Positions 3 through 7,656 of a DNA stretch of 7,656 nucleotides are shown piece by piece. Source of the stretch: Spirochaetia bacterium. Its GTDB lineage: Bacteria; Spirochaetota; Spirochaetia; Treponematales; Breznakiellaceae. The position numbers and the translations under genes were made by a program. Position 1 is the stretch's first letter. Every line of letters begins with the position of its first letter. The stretch is from assembly GCA_025997755.1 (NCBI GenBank), contig BNVA01000094.1, positions 1 to 7,656 of the forward strand. Direction: 5' to 3'. The notes under the pieces are model-generated. The model worked only from the letters and a program-made list of their open reading frames with translations. It was not told the origin of the DNA and did not search any database.

Positions 3-410
3 GAACTAGGAAAGTTAGAAAAAATTATCGGTAACAAATCCGTTGAGCAAATGACCGCAGCCGAGCACTGGGCATACTTTTTACGCTACACAACAGATGT
101 AACCAAACGTCAAACAATAAACAAAATTCTACAAATTGAGGAAGGTATAGAAATGGCAAGTGAAGTTTTAATATCCATCAGCAAAGACGAAGAAGAACGC
201 GCATGGCTGCGCAGCAGGGAAAAATACATACTGGACACACAGAGCCAACTCGTAACAGCAAAACGAGAAGGAAAACTTGAAGGAAAACGAGAGGGAAAAC
301 GTGAGGGTATCGCAAGTGTTGTGAAAAATTTAAAGAGCAGCGGGCTTTTAACACCAATGCAGATACAAGAGATCACAGGATTTTCGCTTGATGATATTGC
401 AAAATCATAA
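3..410 (+). CDS. Rpn-family recombination-promoting nuclease/putative transposase, C-terminal part
   Basis: The frame is open to the left edge: in-frame codons before the first ATG (51) read ELGKLEKIIGNKSVEQ, so the gene is cut by the window and ATG 51 is probably internal. The visible 135 residues resemble the C-terminal half of the Rpn/TIGR01784 PD-(D/E)XK nuclease family: an AEHWAYFLRY-like helix, a stretch of the type 'EEGIEMASEVLISISKDEEERAW', a charged linker with repeated (R/L)EGK units, and a short tail (LTPMQIQEITGFSLDDIAK) typical of these proteins. Family members are DNA endonucleases linked to RecA-independent recombination and are often multicopy in treponemes. The catalytic PD-(D/E)XK core would lie upstream, outside the window, so activity cannot be judged. 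The gene converges on the minus-strand GHMP kinase, 32 bp away. Family call fairly sure; function inferred. Confidence 0.75.
   Translation, partial: ELGKLEKIIGNKSVEQMTAAEHWAYFLRYTTDVTKRQTINKILQIEEGIEMASEVLISISKDEEERAWLRSREKYILDTQSQLVTAKREGKLEGKREGKREGIASVVKNLKSSGLLTPMQIQEITGFSLDDIAKS
264..311 (+). repeat. Four tandem 12-bp units coding (R/L)EGK repeats
   Basis: Units at 264-275, 276-287, 288-299 and 300-311 share the pattern cgagaaggaaaa, with a few substitutions and a diverged last unit. They encode REGK, LEGK, REGK and REGI in the linker of the Rpn-family protein. The 12-bp period keeps the frame if copies are gained or lost, so only linker length would vary. Such repeats are common in this family. 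Confidence 0.7.
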
Positions 411-2620: not shown

Positions 2621-3394
2621 TCAATGACAGAATTGTTGTTTGCCGTACTCCACCTGCCATAAGAATAAACCGTTTGGCGGAATGGTGGGACCGGCGGCGC
2701 TGTGATCGCCTTCTTTTAAAAGTTTTTTAAATTCGCCTAACGGTACACTTTTTTCTTCGCAGCGCAGCAGGGTGCCGGTAACGCAGCGTACCATTTTCCA
2801 AAAAAAGGCGTTTGCGCTTATTTCAAAAACAAGTTTTTCGCCTTCAATAAAAAAATAGGCGTTCCGTATATAGCGGTGTGCCGAGCCTGAACCACGTGTA
2901 AATACGCTGTCGGCGGGCGAGGCAAAAAGCGAGCAGTCAAACTCGCCGTGTAAAAGACGTGCGTAATAGTTTAATGTCTGCACAGACGGACGCCGCCAAA
3001 TTTGATGCGCATAACGGTTTTCGTGAGGCAGCGCCTGTCTGCCGCAGATTATATAATAACGGTAACTTCGCATAACGGCGCTGAAGCGCGCATGAAAATT
3101 CTCCTCCACCTCGCGGGCGCTTGTTATGCGTACATCCTTGGGGAGCAGATTGTTAAGGGCGGGAACAAAGCGTCCGGTATCCATACTGTCAATATCGGTG
3201 TAAAAATTTGCCGCCTGAGAAACGGCATGTACCCCGGCATCGGTGCGTCCCGCGCCTGTAAGCGGCACCCGTTTTTTGTGAATCTTTTCAAGGGCGCTCT
3301 CAATTTCGCCCTGAACCGTGCGGTTCTCCGCCTGTCTCTGCCAGCCCGAAAAATCCGTGCCGTCGTAAGCTGCTGTAATCAGTATGTTACGCAT
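2621..3394 (-). CDS. truA: tRNA pseudouridine(38-40) synthase TruA
   Basis: TruA converts uridines 38, 39 and 40 of the tRNA anticodon stem-loop to pseudouridine. The 257-residue protein begins with the typical ITAAYDGTDFSGWQRQ segment (6-21) and has the catalytic motif GAGRTDAGVHA (48-57), with the nucleophile at Asp52. FHARFSA and YRYYI strands follow in the middle. A segment resembling F.W.MVRC.TGTLL (in the last quarter) and a tail ending in GPTIPPNGLFLWQVEY complete the family pattern. Length is normal (about 245-270). It is the first gene of the minus-strand cluster and diverges from pgk. The ATG has no obvious Shine-Dalgarno. The protein is complete and no key residue is missing. Confidence 0.95.
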   Translation of the reverse strand: MRNILITAAYDGTDFSGWQRQAENRTVQGEIESALEKIHKKRVPLTGAGRTDAGVHAVSQAANFYTDIDSMDTGRFVPALNNLLPKDVRITSAREVEENFHARFSAVMRSYRYYIICGRQALPHENRYAHQIWRRPSVQTLNYYARLLHGEFDCSLFASPADSVFTRGSGSAHRYIRNAYFFIEGEKLVFEISANAFFWKMVRCVTGTLLRCEEKSVPLGEFKKLLKEGDHSAAGPTIPPNGLFLWQVEYGKQQFCH

Positions 3395-4849: not shown

Positions 4850-5746
4850 ATGAAATTTACAGATGAAATTAGGAGGCGTGCAAAAGCAATCATAAAAAAC
4901 TGTTTTCCCGCGCCTCTTAAACGGTACATCTGGATAAACTATTACAAAAAATCATCGTCACGGCGGCTTACAAAAAGAAGCCTTATAAGTTTTGAAGTAA
5001 ATGTTACCGATCATTGTAATTTGAATTGCAGAAGCTGTGAACATTTTTCTCCCATTGCAGACGAAAAGTTTTTGGATATTGACACATACACAAAAGATGT
5101 AGAGCGGCTCTCTTTTTTGTTTGACAAAAAGATTGAGTACATTCACCTTATGGGCGGCGAGCCTTTGCTGCACCCGCGCTTAGACGAAATAATTGAAGTT
5201 AGCCGAAAATATTTTCCCGAGGGCGTTATAGAGATCGTTACAAATGGTCTTCTTGTTTTACGAGAGGACGGCCATTTTTGGGATGTATGCTGCAAAAATA
5301 ATATTACAATAGCAATAACCCAGTATCCGATAAAACTTGATTATAAAAGGATCGAAGAAAAAGCCAATGCAAAAAATGTCCGGCTGCGTTATTATTTTTT
5401 GGGAAAGAAGACGATGCACAAACGTCCATTCGATCTGCGCGGCACACAAAACATCGAAGAAAATTTTGCGGTATGCCACATGGCAAATACCTGTATGCAG
5501 TTATTCGACGGCAAACTTTCAACCTGCGTAATAATTCCATACATACACATTTTTAACAAATTCTTTAATCAAACAATGCAGGTCTGCGAAAAAGATTACA
5601 TTGATATTTATAAAGCAAAGGACAAACAAGAGATATTTGATTTTCTCTGCCGTCCCATTCCATTCTGTAGGTACTGCAACATCAAAAAAACAAAACTTGG
5701 ACTGAACTGGGCTGTATCCAAACAACAGATCGGCGAGTGGACTTGA
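4850..5746 (+). CDS. Radical SAM protein with additional C-terminal cysteine cluster
   Basis: The 298-residue protein has the radical SAM motif CNLNCRSC (Cys56, Cys60, Cys63), which binds the [4Fe-4S] cluster that cleaves S-adenosylmethionine, preceded by TDH and followed by EHFSP. GGEP (102-105) is the usual SAM-contacting segment and IVTNG (129-133) the next conserved strand. More cysteines at 209, 215, 226 and at 267, 273, 276 (CRPIPFCRYC) could bind an auxiliary cluster as in SPASM/twitch proteins. A C-terminal W..SK....EW pattern follows. Homologues of this type are often seen in surface-polysaccharide loci, but the substrate is unknown and nothing here identifies it. The N-terminus is basic, with no signal peptide. 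It lies 37 bp behind pgk and probably shares its transcript; a modest AAGGGTG precedes the ATG. Superfamily sure, reaction unknown. Confidence 0.85.
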   Translation: MKFTDEIRRRAKAIIKNCFPAPLKRYIWINYYKKSSSRRLTKRSLISFEVNVTDHCNLNCRSCEHFSPIADEKFLDIDTYTKDVERLSFLFDKKIEYIHLMGGEPLLHPRLDEIIEVSRKYFPEGVIEIVTNGLLVLREDGHFWDVCCKNNITIAITQYPIKLDYKRIEEKANAKNVRLRYYFLGKKTMHKRPFDLRGTQNIEENFAVCHMANTCMQLFDGKLSTCVIIPYIHIFNKFFNQTMQVCEKDYIDIYKAKDKQEIFDFLCRPIPFCRYCNIKKTKLGLNWAVSKQQIGEWT

Positions 5747-5770
5747 AACTAAAGCCCTTTTCGTTATAAT
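5743..5770 (+). promoter_or_regulatory. Strong sigma70-type promoter at the end of the radical SAM gene
   Basis: TTGAAA (5743-5748), 16-bp spacer, and a perfect TATAAT (5765-5770). The -35 box overlaps the stop codon of the radical SAM gene. Transcription would begin near 5777, only about 5 bases before ATG 5782. It marks the left border of the AT-rich accessory part and could also serve the exported-protein gene at 6128. Confidence 0.7.
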
Positions 5771-5781
5771 GTCTGAAAGTC

Positions 5782-6111
5782 ATGGTTGATATGGAAATTT
5801 TGCAAAATACATCTAAATTTCTACCCCCCCCCCCCACACACGCGTTTTCGCTAAGTCTAAACAATAGAACAATTTACATAGAAATAATCATCGGTTTTCT
5901 CAATATTATTTTACCAATTTTAGTTATCTCAACTATTTATTCGCGTTTACGAACATCCAAAACGATGTTCTTTATGATATGGAGCTATGTTCGTATACAA
6001 GAAGTTATGTGCCAAAAAAGCGCAGAACTAGTTCGAAGAAGACGGCGCGTCATTGCGCGGCTAAGAGAAGAACGGTTTTGTGTTTTAGGCAAAATCAAAC
6101 TTAACTCCTAA
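5782..6111 (+). CDS. Doubtful 109-residue ORF with one hydrophobic segment and a C12 run
   Basis: I do not recognise this protein. If translated it has a short N-terminus, a Pro4 stretch (residues 15-18) coded by 12 consecutive C, one hydrophobic segment at about 31-53 (IYIEIIIGF onward) that could cross the membrane, and an arginine-rich tail (85-97). It starts a few bases after a strong promoter but has no clear Shine-Dalgarno. Against it: odd composition, no known domain, and a tail that could be non-coding sequence. If the ORF is not real, 5747-6127 is a roughly 380-base leader or spacer holding the promoter, a palindrome, the C-run and an inverted repeat at 5951-5970. The frame is open only with a C count of 12 (or 12 plus or minus 3). 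Confidence 0.3.
   Translation: MVDMEILQNTSKFLPPPPTHAFSLSLNNRTIYIEIIIGFLNIILPILVISTIYSRLRTSKTMFFMIWSYVRIQEVMCQKSAELVRRRRRVIARLREERFCVLGKIKLNS
5797..5808. promoter_or_regulatory. 12-bp perfect palindrome downstream of promoter
   Basis: ATTTTGCAAAAT is a perfect palindrome centred about 25 bases after the expected transcription start. It could be an operator, but in AT-rich DNA it may be chance. Confidence 0.25.
5824..5835 (+). repeat. Homopolymer run of 12 C
   Basis: Twelve consecutive C sit 53 bases after the TATAAT box, inside the ORF beginning at 5782. With 11 C the frame meets TAA shortly after the run, and with 13 C it meets TAG, so slippage would switch the ORF off. Poly-G/C runs are known phase-variation sites in Treponema pallidum. 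The count may also suffer sequencing error. Confidence 0.9.
5951..5970. repeat. 7-bp inverted repeat, possible operator
   Basis: GAACATC (5951-5957) and GATGTTC (5964-5970) are perfect inverted copies separated by 6 bases. It resembles a dimeric regulator site, but no promoter is visible beside it. Confidence 0.25.
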
Positions 6112-6114
6112 AAT

Positions 6115-6120
6115 AGGAGA
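6115..6120 (+). promoter_or_regulatory. Ribosome binding site for the GTG-start exported protein
   Basis: AGGAGA lies 7 bases before GTG 6128. It is the strongest Shine-Dalgarno in the right half and supports the non-ATG start. Confidence 0.7.
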
Positions 6121-6127
6121 GTAGTTT

Positions 6128-6601
6128 GTGCTAAAAACTACGGAAACTCTCACGACCAAGAGAAAGCTTGTTTTTCTTGTATTTTTGGTGTTTTTCAGTT
6201 TTTCAAATGTTTTTGCAAAGGAGTCAGATCTTTTGGCACCATGGCTCGAAGTTTTGGGAAAACCTTTACCAAAGGATTTTATACGACTGGATCGAACTCT
6301 GTTTATTAAAAAAGATAAATCAGGGCTTGATGTTTTAGTTACTATAAAAGATGGTGTAGTAATACATAGCGTGCTAGGCGCGGCATTTAGTTCAACAGAT
6401 GAAGCTGTGGTATGGGCAGCACCGTTCTACATCGTATTTGAGGGTATAGGAACTTATTATGGTCAGTCAAAGTCAGGTGGTGATATTTATAAAATTAATA
6501 ATGCTTTTGCACTGATTGATTGGTTGAGACTAAGAGCAGATGGTTTAATTGCTCGTGCAGTTATGTTTTCATTAGATTTAGAATATCTAAAAGTGCAGTA
6601 A
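6128..6601 (+). CDS. Small exported protein of unknown function
   Basis: Not assigned to a known family. The 157-residue product has a clear Sec signal peptide: basic TTKRK (9-13), hydrophobic core LVFLVFLVFFSFSNVFA (14-30) and a likely signal peptidase I site after VFA (30/31). No lipobox cysteine is present, so a periplasmic or secreted location is expected. The mature part (about 127 residues) is soluble-looking, with a strand-like stretch LDVLVTIKDGVVIHSVLG (67-84), an aromatic segment around 95-111, and a C-terminal helix. The start is GTG 6128, preceded by AGGAGA (6115-6120) at 7 bases, which decides it over later codons. The gene is AT-rich compared with the housekeeping part to the left, and no promoter lies immediately upstream, so transcription may come from the promoter at 5743. 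The next gene begins 25 bp after the stop. Confidence 0.75.
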   Translation: MLKTTETLTTKRKLVFLVFLVFFSFSNVFAKESDLLAPWLEVLGKPLPKDFIRLDRTLFIKKDKSGLDVLVTIKDGVVIHSVLGAAFSSTDEAVVWAAPFYIVFEGIGTYYGQSKSGGDIYKINNAFALIDWLRLRADGLIARAVMFSLDLEYLKVQ

Positions 6602-6626
6602 TAGTTAAAAATTGGAAATGTACAAG

Positions 6627-6878
6627 ATGAATAAAGCAGATAATGTTCGAGAATATTGCATAGATAATTATATAAATCCAGCACGTAAAAGAAAAGAGAA
6701 AGGGGTGTTTATTAGTTCTGGCGATGTTCATAAAGCTTTGAGGTTAAGTAAAAGTTATCCCGCAGTATGCGCTGCGCTTGGTTCTGAGATGTTTGAAACT
6801 GATGCAAACGTGCAACGTGTACATATTTGCGGTCCATTAAATAGTGCGAGTACTACATTTGTGTTTATTTTTAGATAG
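6627..6878 (+). CDS. Small hypothetical protein, 83 residues
   Basis: I cannot name its family with certainty. From ATG 6627 the product is MNKADN onward; GGAA at 6614-6617 sits 9 bases before this ATG and favours it over ATG 6618 and TTG 6612. The sequence looks like a compact, conserved fold: a helix with REYC (9-12), a basic PARKRKEKG turn, then ISSGDVHKAL (about 30-39), PAVCAALGSEMF (about 46-57), and a terminal ICGPLNSASTTFVF strand (about 68-81). The ordered 'SGDVHKAL...PAVCAAL' pattern is like small winged-helix-type proteins found as orphan genes in several bacteria, but a DNA-binding role is only a guess. It follows the exported-protein gene by 25 bp and precedes the structured attC-like region. 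Confidence 0.6.
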   Translation: MNKADNVREYCIDNYINPARKRKEKGVFISSGDVHKALRLSKSYPAVCAALGSEMFETDANVQRVHICGPLNSASTTFVFIFR

Positions 6879-6897
6879 AAAAAAGATTAATTTTTCG

Positions 6898-6956
6898 GCT
6901 GTAGTGGCGCACGGCAAACGTCCGTGTTTGCCGCTTCGTAGCTGGGTTTCTACAGC
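6898..6956. other. Long imperfect stem-loop just after the 83-residue ORF
   Basis: Outer arms GCTGTAG (6898-6904) and CTACAGC (6950-6956) are perfect inverted copies. Inside them CGGCAAAC (6912-6919) pairs with GTTTGCCG (6926-6933) around a 6-nt loop. The segment is much richer in GC than its flanks. It may be a terminator-like structure for the upstream genes or the left part of a longer cassette boundary with the attC-like site that follows at once. Confidence 0.5.
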
Positions 6957-7021
6957 ACATAACACAACGGTTTCTGCTTCGCCGCAGTAGCGGCTTGGTC
7001 GTAAACTTTTCACGTTATGCG
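6957..7021. other. Putative integron attC-like recombination site
   Basis: The outer pair is ACATAAC (6957-6963) and GTTATGC (7014-7020), matching the R''/R' simple sites (RYYYAAC and GTTRRRY) except for one position each. Moving inward, GTTT (6970-6973) pairs with AAAC (7003-7006) where the L''/L' boxes belong, and GCCGC (6981-6985) pairs with GCGGC (6990-6994) around AGTA at the tip. Unpaired internal loops are nearly symmetrical (6/7 and 7/8 bases). Length, about 65 bp, lies in the attC range. The site separates two short-gene units, as expected for gene cassettes. Treponema denticola has a chromosomal integron. No integrase or second convincing attC is in the window, so this is unproven. 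Confidence 0.5.
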
Positions 7022-7039
7022 AAATTTGTGTCTTGAAGA

Positions 7040-7057
7040 TGCATGAAAAATCATACA
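7040..7057. promoter_or_regulatory. Possible operator upstream of the toxin-antitoxin promoter
   Basis: TGCATGA (7040-7046) and TCATACA (7051-7057) form an inverted repeat with one mismatch and a 4-base spacer, 10 bases before the -35 box. Antitoxins commonly autoregulate their operons, so this is a candidate site for the DUF433 protein. Confidence 0.25.
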
Positions 7058-7067
7058 CATAAAATAG

Positions 7068-7096
7068 TTGACAAAAAAACATAGACGTTATATAAT
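7068..7096 (+). promoter_or_regulatory. Perfect-consensus sigma70 promoter of the toxin-antitoxin operon
   Basis: TTGACA (7068-7073), a 17-bp spacer and TATAAT (7091-7096) match the sigma70 consensus at all positions. The start point should fall around 7102-7104, at the antitoxin ATG (7104), which predicts a leaderless or nearly leaderless mRNA. Confidence 0.88.
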
Positions 7097-7103
7097 AAAC
7101 ATT

Positions 7104-7340
7104 ATGGGAAATGATGAATTATCTGCATATATCACTATAGATCAAGGCATTCGTTTTGGGAAACCTTGTATAAAAGGGACTCGTATTACCGTAAGTGATA
7201 TACTTCAATGGTTATCAGAGGGTATACCGGTGGAAGAAATATTGGATGATTATCCTTTATTAAAGGAACAACATATTCGTGCTGCATTAGCTTTTGCCGC
7301 AAGGCGTGAGGAAGTTGTTAAAATTGTTGCAATAGCATAA
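7104..7340 (+). CDS. DUF433 family antitoxin
   Basis: DUF433 proteins are small DNA-binding antitoxins, usually paired with a DUF5615 PIN-like toxin that they neutralise and co-regulate. The 78-residue product shows the family core: ITIDQGIRFGKPCIKGTRIT (10-29), the helix-turn-helix region VSDILQWLSEGIPVEEILDDYP (30-51), and the C-terminal helix KEQHIRAALAFAARREE (54-70). ATG 7104 is chosen because in-frame codons upstream lie inside the promoter, with TTG 7068 in the -35 box itself. No Shine-Dalgarno is present, which fits leaderless translation. The toxin ORF starts 8 bp after the stop. The gene lies directly behind the attC-like site and has its own promoter, as is common for toxin-antitoxin modules in cassette arrays. 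The antitoxin looks intact. Confidence 0.88.
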   Translation: MGNDELSAYITIDQGIRFGKPCIKGTRITVSDILQWLSEGIPVEEILDDYPLLKEQHIRAALAFAARREEVVKIVAIA

Positions 7341-7348
7341 ATTTAACA

Positions 7349-7510
7349 ATGAAAATATTACTTGATGCCAATATATCTTGGAAATTAACAAAAGCACTAT
7401 CACCAATTTTTGGGGAATGCTTACACGTTGATAATATAGGTATTACCGTACCGGTGCAGGATGTGGATATTGGGAAAAATTCTAAAATCTTGCACGCATA
7501 TTTTTTGTGA
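7349..7510 (+). pseudogene. DUF5615 (PIN-like) toxin, truncated by a palindromic insertion
   Basis: From ATG 7349 the frame reads MKILLDANISWKLTKAL, the standard N-terminus of DUF5615 PIN-like toxins (Asp6 is the first acidic active-site residue), then FGECLHVDNIG and VPVQDVDI. Intact members continue with a W..A.....IVT.D.DF-type segment carrying further acidic residues. Here the match ends at about residue 41 (coding to about 7471), and 12 foreign residues follow to TGA 7508-7510. The frame ends inside a long palindrome (7473-7548), so an insertion has removed the C-terminal half, including the remaining active-site acids. The product, 53 residues against about 110-120 for the family, should not be an active nuclease. 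It starts 8 bp after the antitoxin stop with no Shine-Dalgarno, so it would be translationally coupled. Confidence 0.78.
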
Positions 7511-7548
7511 CCATTACCGGAAAATCCAGGATTTTAGAATTTTTTTCC
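7473..7548. repeat. Palindromic element interrupting the toxin gene
   Basis: The arms AAAAATTCTAAAATC (7475-7489) and GATTTTAGAATTTTT (7530-7544) are perfect 15-bp inverted copies. Pairing extends inward through one wobble to TTG/CAG (7490-7492 with 7527-7529) and outward to GG/CC with a two-T bulge, around a 34-nt loop. The right arm also forms its own small palindrome, AAAATCC-A-GGATTTT (7521-7535). It starts exactly where similarity to the toxin stops. It could be a MITE-like or REP-like dispersed repeat, or the terminal part of an insertion sequence that continues past the right edge. Confidence 0.7.
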
Positions 7549-7656
7549 TTAATTTGTGGTTATTGGCGGCAATTCCTGTCTGCACTGCCAAAACCATACC
7601 ACTATGCCAATAAATGTTGAAGCCGTGGAAAAAGCCGCGCCCTGCGAACACATACG
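7549..7656 (-). other. Right-edge segment beyond the palindrome, possibly 3' end of a repeat-borne ORF
   Basis: The GC content rises again and the toxin sequence does not resume. On the minus strand a frame is open from the right edge to TAA at 7549-7551, 35 residues ending in WQCRQELPPITTN, and the stop abuts the palindrome, which would then act as its terminator. A plus-strand frame from GTG 7556 is open to the edge as well, so coding strand, or coding at all, is uncertain. I do not recognise either product. Confidence 0.25.

What the first reader, a model, noticed from the sequence alone, without database searches (positions are those of the whole stretch)
6957..7021. attC-like site next to a self-promoted toxin-antitoxin module: possible gene-cassette region
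The sequence folds as R''/R' (ACATAAC with GTTATGC), an inner GTTT/AAAC pair and a GCCGC/GCGGC tip, with near-symmetrical internal loops. It divides two units of short AT-rich genes. Integron cassettes with their own toxin-antitoxin promoter, and a chromosomal integron in Treponema denticola, are established knowledge. If true, 6128-6878 and 7104 onward are separate cassettes in a spirochaete integron or an integrase-less cluster of attC sites.
Basis: partly seen in the sequence, partly recalled or inferred. Interest (0 to 1): 0.75.

Follow-up and report, generated by a model that had tools for sequence, protein, structure and literature searches.

The report
Integron cassettes with a stripped-down integrase
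The flagged hairpin looks like a genuine gene-cassette recombination site, and its relatives form integron-like arrays in spirochaetes whose accompanying recombinase lacks the protein domain thought to be essential for capturing cassettes.

Summary
The site (6954-7026) is an attC. It closes a cassette, 6005-7014, inserted at an attI-like site whose crossover GTT is at 6004. A second cassette with a self-promoted DUF433/DUF5615 pair (DUF5615 truncated) starts at 7015.

Relatives of the site occur in 169 of 195 genomes of the Treponema primitia family and form same-strand arrays in the genomes I looked into. There each R'' pairs with the start of its own cassette: 36 of 54 pairs perfect, against 4 of 54 with its own R', permutation 0 of 5000; in single-contig genome G054 32 of 40 against 2 of 40. 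This is the G^TT integron crossover.

The twist is the recombinase. Arrays in G054 and T. primitia begin with an IntI/XerA-like tyrosine recombinase lacking the ~41-residue IntI-specific (I2) insert. In the tree such enzymes lie outside IntI. Their attC sites lack the canonical protruding-G bulge, though another bulge is not excluded.

A 2013 survey reported no integrons in termite-gut Treponema. No recombination was measured, and the window's own genome is not held.

The parts
5743..5770 (+). promoter-like TTGAAA-16-TATAAT, possible cassette promoter about 230 bp before the attI-like site
   Evidence: 11 of 12 consensus match; the number of promoter-like sites in the region (8) is close to the shuffled mean of 6.7, so weak evidence
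5990..6012 (+). attI-like insertion site TTCGTATAC-AAGAA-GTTATGTGC; crossover inferred between 6004 and 6005
   Evidence: Only GTT of 156 in the window that pairs in 6 of 7 positions with R'' of the attC; two others pair in 5. attI matrix score 14.2, next best of 63 GTTA sites in the window 1.2. Matches L193 (39 nt, 76.9%) and L131 (26 nt, 92.3%)
6005..7014 (+). first gene cassette
   Evidence: Bounded by the inferred G^TT points of the attI-like site and of the attC
6128..6601 (+). cassette ORF, 157 aa, hydrophobic N-terminus, no Pfam match
   Evidence: only the window's own entry found in a search of about 5.77 billion proteins
6612..6878 (+). cassette ORF, 88 aa, no Pfam match
   Evidence: besides the window's own entry one protein (65%) in the database and matches in 3 of 195 family genomes
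6910..6946 (+). hairpin-bearing stretch just before the attC, shared with a cassette end in another array
   Evidence: 91.9% over 37 nt to L153 at 3032-2996, directly before an attC at 2990
6954..7026 (+). attC site, short form (R'' ..AAC 6961-6963, L'' GTTT 6970-6973, tip hairpin 6981-6994, L' AAAC 7003-7006, R' GTTATGC 7014-7020)
7015..7656 (+). start of second cassette (its own attC not found in the window)
   Evidence: begins at the inferred G^TT point of the attC; no model match above 7.2 bits after 7026
7068..7096 (+). consensus promoter TTGACA-17-TATAAT of the DUF433 gene; start codon 8 bases further, so probably leaderless
   Evidence: 12 of 12 match
7104..7340 (+). DUF433 gene (antitoxin-like)
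   Evidence: PF04255 86.9 bits
7349..7510 (+). 5' part of a DUF5615 (PIN-like toxin) gene; homology stops at about residue 41
   Evidence: PF18480 25.2 bits, profile positions 1-40 of 110

Best explanation
Window 5990-7656 is a small integrase-less cassette cluster of a non-canonical spirochaete integron. A circular cassette (two short genes of unknown function plus an attC) was inserted at a double-strand attI-like site beside a radical SAM gene, by strand exchange between G and TT of GTTA. A second cassette with a self-promoted DUF433/DUF5615 pair follows. The recombinase would be supplied in trans by a tyrosine recombinase related to IntI and XerA that lacks the IntI-specific I2 insert. It would recognise a folded attC by its R and L arms, and perhaps by the asymmetric unpaired spacer (4 against 6-7 nt) instead of the canonical protruding G. 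Shown by sequence: the attC family, the arrays, the G^TT boundaries, the attI-like point between recombinase gene and first cassette in relatives, and the missing insert. Inferred: that this enzyme does the recombination, that attC reacts as a folded single strand, how the strand is chosen, and that the window's own genome carries the enzyme.
For: Same-strand arrays in G007, G048, G050, G160 and G054. R'' of a site pairs with the start of its own cassette rather than with its own R': 36 of 54 perfect against 4 of 54, permutation 0 of 5000; G054 32 of 40 against 2 of 40 (four of these pairs are also among the 54), and the longest ORF lies on the array strand in 34 of the 35 cassettes that have one of 40 aa or more, 41 cassettes in all. 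A recombinase gene precedes the array on the same strand in single-contig genomes G159 (T. primitia ZAS-2, named through P0004) and G054. In 10 loci with a recombinase gene and an attC downstream, the best GTT between them pairs with that attC's R'' 7 of 7 in six (L182, L188, L190, L192, L193, L194; reached by 0.05-1.05% of shuffled R''), 6 of 7 in three (L097, L183, L200; 1-5%) and 4 of 7 in one (L191; 82%). Box II to box III spacing is 107-108 aa in all 35 IntI rows parsed, 65-72 in the I2-less rows parsed, 70-77 in Xer; 14 rows were not parsed. The five family genomes with IntI over the cut-off have no hit of the attC model, while 169 of 195 genomes do. attI-like sites away from a recombinase gene with 7 of 7 pairing: L218 (T. 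primitia, second locus), L141, L216. In the window: attI-like score 14.2 and 6 of 7 pairing, attC E=5e-10.
Against: The fold of the window's site is not significant and its L box has only 4 bp, so it may be worn out. Pairing at the window's 5' junction is 6, not 7, of 7. Other attI-like points pair less well: L160 6 of 7, L156 5 of 7, L212 0 of 7. The 88-aa ORF's relatives in three genomes are not flanked by detectable attC sites. The window holds one attC only. Recombinase loci L185-L187, L189 and L195-L197 show no attC by the profile; several of these contigs end soon after the gene, but L185 (G007, which has large arrays elsewhere) shows none in 14 kb. T. denticola, the known-integron control, shows the pairing trend (4.79 against 3.50 of 7) but no perfect heptamer. 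A one-base bulge could lengthen the L helix by 2-3 bp in 15 of 72 sites, and in 32 of 41 in G054, so an extrahelical base is not excluded. T. primitia's enzyme scores slightly higher on the archaeal XerA profile (215.1) than on the IntI profile (203.8). No recombination data exist. The predicted structure has a low pTM, 0.46.
Confidence: 0.82

Rival explanations
1. The arrays are remnants (CALIN) of an ordinary IntI integron that was lost; the I2-less recombinase beside some of them is a different enzyme that happens to sit there.
For: The window locus and several other loci lack an integrase; G157 has attC sites and a broken recombinase (L212); G007's recombinase has no attC in 14 kb (L185).
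Against: Cassette borders are still sharp; the recombinase gene precedes the array and an attI-like point in G054, T. primitia and several MAGs; G054 and T. primitia have no IntI over the cut-off; the five IntI genomes of the family have no such attC.
Confidence: 0.12
2. The window cassette was inserted by a canonical IntI into a non-classical genomic (attG-like) site.
For: Cassette insertion at genomic attG sites by IntI is published (passages of PMC12901181; Loot 2024 seen only as a reference there). The window shows no integrase.
Against: The 5' junction resembles the attI-like points of I2-less platforms, and the attC model has no hit in the five family genomes with IntI.
Confidence: 0.06
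3. The hairpin is an ordinary dispersed repeat (REP or MITE type) between unrelated genes.
For: It is multi-copy, with hairpins, and many copies lie near contig ends.
Against: Same-strand arrays with short ORFs between, and R'' varying with the preceding R' rather than with its own partner.
Confidence: 0.02
4. A sub-question of the best explanation: the I2-less integrases descend from IntI by loss of I2 rather than from before its gain.
For: They share a C-terminal SPLD/SPLS end with IntI and their best PDB sequence match is IntI 2a3v; rooting rests on four or five Xer rows.
Against: With columns filled in under 65% of rows (among them the insert) dropped, the 27 IntI rows form one clade (100/99) that excludes the 48 I2-less rows.
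Confidence: 0.4

Closest known systems
Chromosomal integron of Treponema denticola / T. succinifaciens (canonical IntI)
   Same: Integrase in the same direction as cassettes (Wu 2013; here G054 and T. primitia), attI, attC array, G^TT boundaries, spirochaete host; an N-terminal extension of the integrase in several spirochaete IntI
   Different: IntI there keeps the additional domain (107-aa spacing). One bulged base lengthens the L helix by 4 bp or more in 19 of 28 T. denticola sites, in 0 of 72 and 0 of 41 sites here
CALIN (cluster of attC sites lacking an integron integrase)
   Same: The window locus has cassettes and no integrase
   Different: An attI-like site is present at the head; IntegronFinder 2 asks for at least two attC sites by default (passage), the window has one
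attG genomic insertion sites
   Same: Cassette inserted away from an integrase gene
   Different: The site here looks like the system's own attI (TTCGTATAC-5nt-GTTA), not a divergent site
Xer recombinases and archaeal XerA
   Different: An extra N-terminal domain, and a place at the head of cassette arrays; the treponeme XerC/D-like rows are separate in the tree; no archaeal XerA row was in the tree

Membership tests
Integron | attC sites with R''/R' and L''/L' boxes between cassettes | tested here: met
   the window's own L box is weak (4 bp)
Integron | Site-specific crossover between G and TT of R', so that R'' matches the start of its own cassette | tested here: met
   36 of 54 against 4 of 54; 32 of 40 against 2 of 40 in G054; control T. 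denticola 4.79 against 3.50 of 7; window 6 of 7
Integron | IntI integrase with the additional (I2) domain | tested here: not met
   In relatives: over the TIGR02249 cut-off in 5 of 195 family genomes, none of them with a hit of this attC model; spacing 65-72 against 107-108 aa. Window genome itself not held
Integron | Extrahelical base (protruding G) in the L box of attC | tested here: inconclusive
   Unbulged L helix of 8-10 bp in 53 of 72 sites and no bulge that adds 4 bp or more (0 of 72; G054 0 of 41; T. denticola 19 of 28), but a bulge adding 2-3 bp is possible in 15 of 72 and in 32 of 41 in G054
Integron | attI next to the integrase gene | tested here: met
   In relatives: 7 of 7 pairing in 6 of 10 loci, 6 of 7 in 3, 4 of 7 in 1. 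In the window: attI-like site, no integrase beside it
Integron | Cassette genes in one orientation | tested here: met
   34 of 35 G054 cassettes with an ORF of 40 aa or more; 6 of 41 cassettes have none
Integron | Recombination of folded single-stranded attC shown by experiment | not testable with these tools
   no assay
CALIN | At least two attC sites without integrase | tested here: not met
   one attC in the window
DUF433/DUF5615 toxin-antitoxin pair | Intact antitoxin and toxin genes | tested here: not met
   DUF433 matches over the whole profile; DUF5615 matches only profile positions 1-40 of 110

The most novel reading that the evidence does not exclude
Treponemes of the T. primitia family, and some other spirochaetes, carry working integrons run by an IntI-like recombinase that never had the I2 domain. 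Its attC sites lack the canonical protruding G and set strand choice in another way, perhaps by spacer asymmetry. It would be a surviving intermediate between Xer-type double-strand recombinases and integron integrases, and one enzyme would serve several attI-like sites around the chromosome.
Probability: 0.4. Interest if true: 0.92.

Novelty: new variant of a known kind. Interest (0 to 1): 0.85.

Why it matters
The I2 domain is described as necessary for cassette capture, as conferring single-strand recombination and as not found in any other protein, and the lack of intermediates is named as a limit to reconstructing its origin (eLife 2020 PMC7790495, passages). Surveys use the extra domain to recognise integron integrases (PMC8352920 and PMC9024848, passages), so an I2-less system could be missed or counted as CALIN. 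A natural system with arrays of 40 cassettes and no I2 would make the question of what I2 is for directly testable. It would also revise the published statement that termite-gut Treponema have no integrons (PMC3607928).

Tried and rejected
Fold energy as a test of the attC: not significant against shuffles, so dropped as evidence. A first version of the R'' test took the first AAC in reach and gave prev better in 29, own better in 9, tie 16 of 54 (means 4.0 and 3.13); I then placed the AAC by its profile position (the version reported: 43, 4 and 7). Sites without a recognisable AAC or GTT, or without a neighbour 150-2500 bases before, were left out: 54 of 111 sites were testable.

No bulge as a clean difference: one search suggested it, but a check that also lengthens the helix past a bulge showed that 2-3 bp can be gained in 15 of 72 sites and in 32 of 41 in G054, so only the stronger statement about 4 bp or more is kept.

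ORF relatives as a cassette test: the 88-aa ORF has relatives in 3 of 195 genomes, none with a detectable attC nearby; the 157-aa ORF has none: no support either way. Empty-site comparison: no hit at 1e-20 for PGK, TruA, GHMP kinase or radical SAM in the 269 loci on hand (an earlier run, printed nothing), so no unoccupied orthologue was found. Remnants of an integrase just upstream of the window's attI-like site: none seen by ORF or Pfam.

Contig-end position of the recombinase: 15 of 24 genes lie under 2 kb from a contig end downstream, 9 of 24 upstream (coordinates typed in, four gene ends approximated); not used as proof. The structure comparison spans residues 113-381 only; the N-terminal domain is barely tested. 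Other-spirochaete I2-less enzymes: attC-like repeats seen beside L254 and L255, weak profile matches in L257 and L258, the rest inconclusive. Tree rows dropped: five whose boxes were not found, ten more thinned out.

In one search I searched 50 of the 62 loci first asked for, and 47 genomes were held.

Literature: eight answered searches listed no report of integrons in termite-gut treponemes other than PMC3607928, which denies them, and none whose title or abstract start tells of an I2-less integron. Most subscription papers and all preprints are not held.

Full report
What is in the window. The best matches of the window's pfkB kinase, 78-86% identical for most of the top 40 rows, lie in records titled Treponema sp., Spirochaetaceae or Spirochaetia bacterium. 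That many of these MAGs are from termite and cockroach guts I infer from recalled isolate names; the titles do not say so. T. primitia and T. azotonutricium are named as termite-gut species in PMC3607928. No genome is held for the window. From left to right it has the 3' end of a PDDEXK transposase gene, GHMP kinase, pfkB kinase, TruA, PGK and a radical SAM gene, then the AT-rich part that holds the finding.

The site. The described boxes are present. Folding energy does not set the site apart. Homology does: 71 of 195 family genomes match at E<=0.1, and a covariance model of 28 array sites that did not include the window gives 40.1 bits, E=5e-10. In relatives the array site is about 160-190 nt, with further hairpins between the L boxes; the window has a short form, as do copies in G013, G015, G048, G050 and G160.

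Arrays. In G007, G048, G050 and G160 the sites repeat on one strand about every 0.5-2.1 kb. In G054, whose single contig is as long as the genome, there are 42 sites from 3521953 to 3560492, all on one strand; 34 of the 35 cassettes with an ORF of 40 aa or more have the longest one on that strand, and 6 of 41 have no such ORF. T. primitia ZAS-2 (G159, identified by its own integrase record P0004 on a 4,059,867-base contig) has sites at 2033214-2035949 and 2054888-2061618 and a second locus at about 484300-487700. G157, whose length is the one I recall for T. azotonutricium ZAS-9, has sites too, and a recombinase gene in broken pieces.

The crossover test. In an integron the part of R' after G belongs to the next cassette, so R'' should match the start of its own cassette. 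Of 111 sites found in L141-L202, 54 could be tested: the seven bases before AAC pair perfectly with the seven after the preceding GTT in 36 and with the site's own R' in 4; means 6.41 and 4.91; 0 of 5000 permutations of the preceding R' reach the observed sum, against 185 of 5000 for the own R'. G054 alone: 32 of 40 against 2 of 40 (four of these pairs are among the 54). The canonical array of a T. denticola-length genome, as control, gives means of 4.79 (24 pairs) against 3.50 (28 sites), without perfect heptamers. In the window the only GTT of 156 that pairs in six or more positions with R'' is at 6004. Hence the cassette 6005-7014.

attI. Ten loci had a recombinase gene and an attC downstream on the same strand. 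The best GTT between them pairs 7 of 7 with that attC in six, 6 of 7 in three (T. primitia among them) and 4 of 7 in one. Nine of these points share a left arm, about ATTCGTATACAGGGA, before GTTA. A matrix of the nine, window not included, gives the window's 6004 site 14.2; the next of 63 GTTA sites in the window scores 1.2. The site reads as an imperfect inverted repeat, TTCGTATAC-5 nt-GTTATGCGAA in type form, like a double-strand Xer-type core (read by eye). I then looked at eight high-scoring points. Three pair 7 of 7 and have no recombinase gene in the sequence seen upstream: T. primitia L218 (1,457 bases seen), G160 L141 (1,570) and G086 L216 (384). L201 pairs 7 of 7 and has a divergent recombinase gene. 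L160 pairs 6, L156 5 and L212 0 of 7. The window pairs 6 of 7. The window belongs to the class without a recombinase gene beside the site.

The recombinase. The array-head proteins read are 380-430 aa: an N-terminal stretch of about 110 aa, then a tyrosine recombinase ending in SPLD (one sequence is cut by its contig end). Three of them score 200-210 bits on the integron integrase profile, under its cut-off of 265, and 205-215 bits on the archaeal XerA profile, under its cut-off of 220. On the IntI profile there is a gap at positions about 177-233. Against IntI 2a3v, 59 residues are replaced by 17. The distance from GKGxKDR to HxxRH is 107 or 108 aa in all 35 IntI rows parsed and 65-72 in the I2-less rows parsed; 14 rows, one of them IntI, were not parsed by that pattern. 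Five of 195 family genomes have IntI over the cut-off; none of these has a hit of the attC model at E<=0.001, while 169 of 195 genomes do (at most 13 candidates per genome were scored). Of the other listed negatives three (G085, G111, G134) have an I2-less hit, and six negatives were not listed. In trees with and without the insert columns IntI is one clade and the I2-less rows lie outside it; rooting relies on Xer rows, and IntI from outside spirochaetes is represented by two rows. Across the phylum IntI over the cut-off is found in 52 of 392 genomes, so canonical integrons are common in other spirochaetes.

attC structure. In 53 of 72 sites with both ends the L helix is 8-10 bp without a bulge, and in 58 of the 61 sites with at least 6 bp the spacers are 4 and 6 or 7 nt; in 28 T. 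denticola sites the unbulged helix is 5-6 bp. One bulged base lengthens the helix by 4 bp or more in 19 of 28 T. denticola sites, and in 0 of 72 and, for G054, 0 of 41 sites here; it lengthens it by 2-3 bp in 15 of 72 and 32 of 41. So the canonical protruding-G bulge is missing, but a bulge nearer the end of the L helix is possible, most of all in G054 and T. primitia. PLoS Genet 2009 (PMC2727003, passages) reports that the extrahelical G sets strand choice and that the unpaired spacer can still do so without it. The proposed polarity from spacer asymmetry is inference.

Second cassette. After 7014 a perfect promoter precedes DUF433, followed by a DUF5615 gene that loses homology near 7470, where an 18-bp inverted repeat lies.

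Known or new. Wu et al. 2013 (PMC3607928; parts 1-3 of 4 read) state that T. primitia and T. azotonutricium lack integrons, having searched with T. [quoted passage not shown] Such searches could miss this system (inference). The searches listed under Tried and rejected showed no later report.

Noticed in passing
window 7475-7544: 18-bp inverted repeat (94%, 34 nt apart) where the DUF5615 gene loses homology; possible insertion end.
   Followed up: no
window 51-410: C-terminal part of a PDDEXK_2 family transposase gene (Pfam score just under cut-off) with 12-nt-spaced repeats at 257-304.
   Followed up: no
window 6007-6111: The ATG inside R' (GTTATG) could start a 34-aa cassette ORF; the start of a G048 cassette is similar (L143 4336-4441, 66%).
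   Followed up: partly
window 3064-3132 (-): Second-best attC model match (17.9 bits), inside truA; palindromic coding sequence, probably chance.
   Followed up: partly
L201: I2-less integrase divergent from its attI-like site and attC, unlike the co-directional T. primitia and G054 loci.
   Followed up: partly
L255 (G366), L254 (G326): I2-less integrases in other spirochaetes with attC-like repeats downstream; G326 also has a canonical IntI.
   Followed up: partly
L183, L198 integrase N-termini: An N-terminal beta-alpha-beta domain precedes the recombinase in the T. primitia enzyme, and a similar stretch is seen in several spirochaete IntI.
   Followed up: partly
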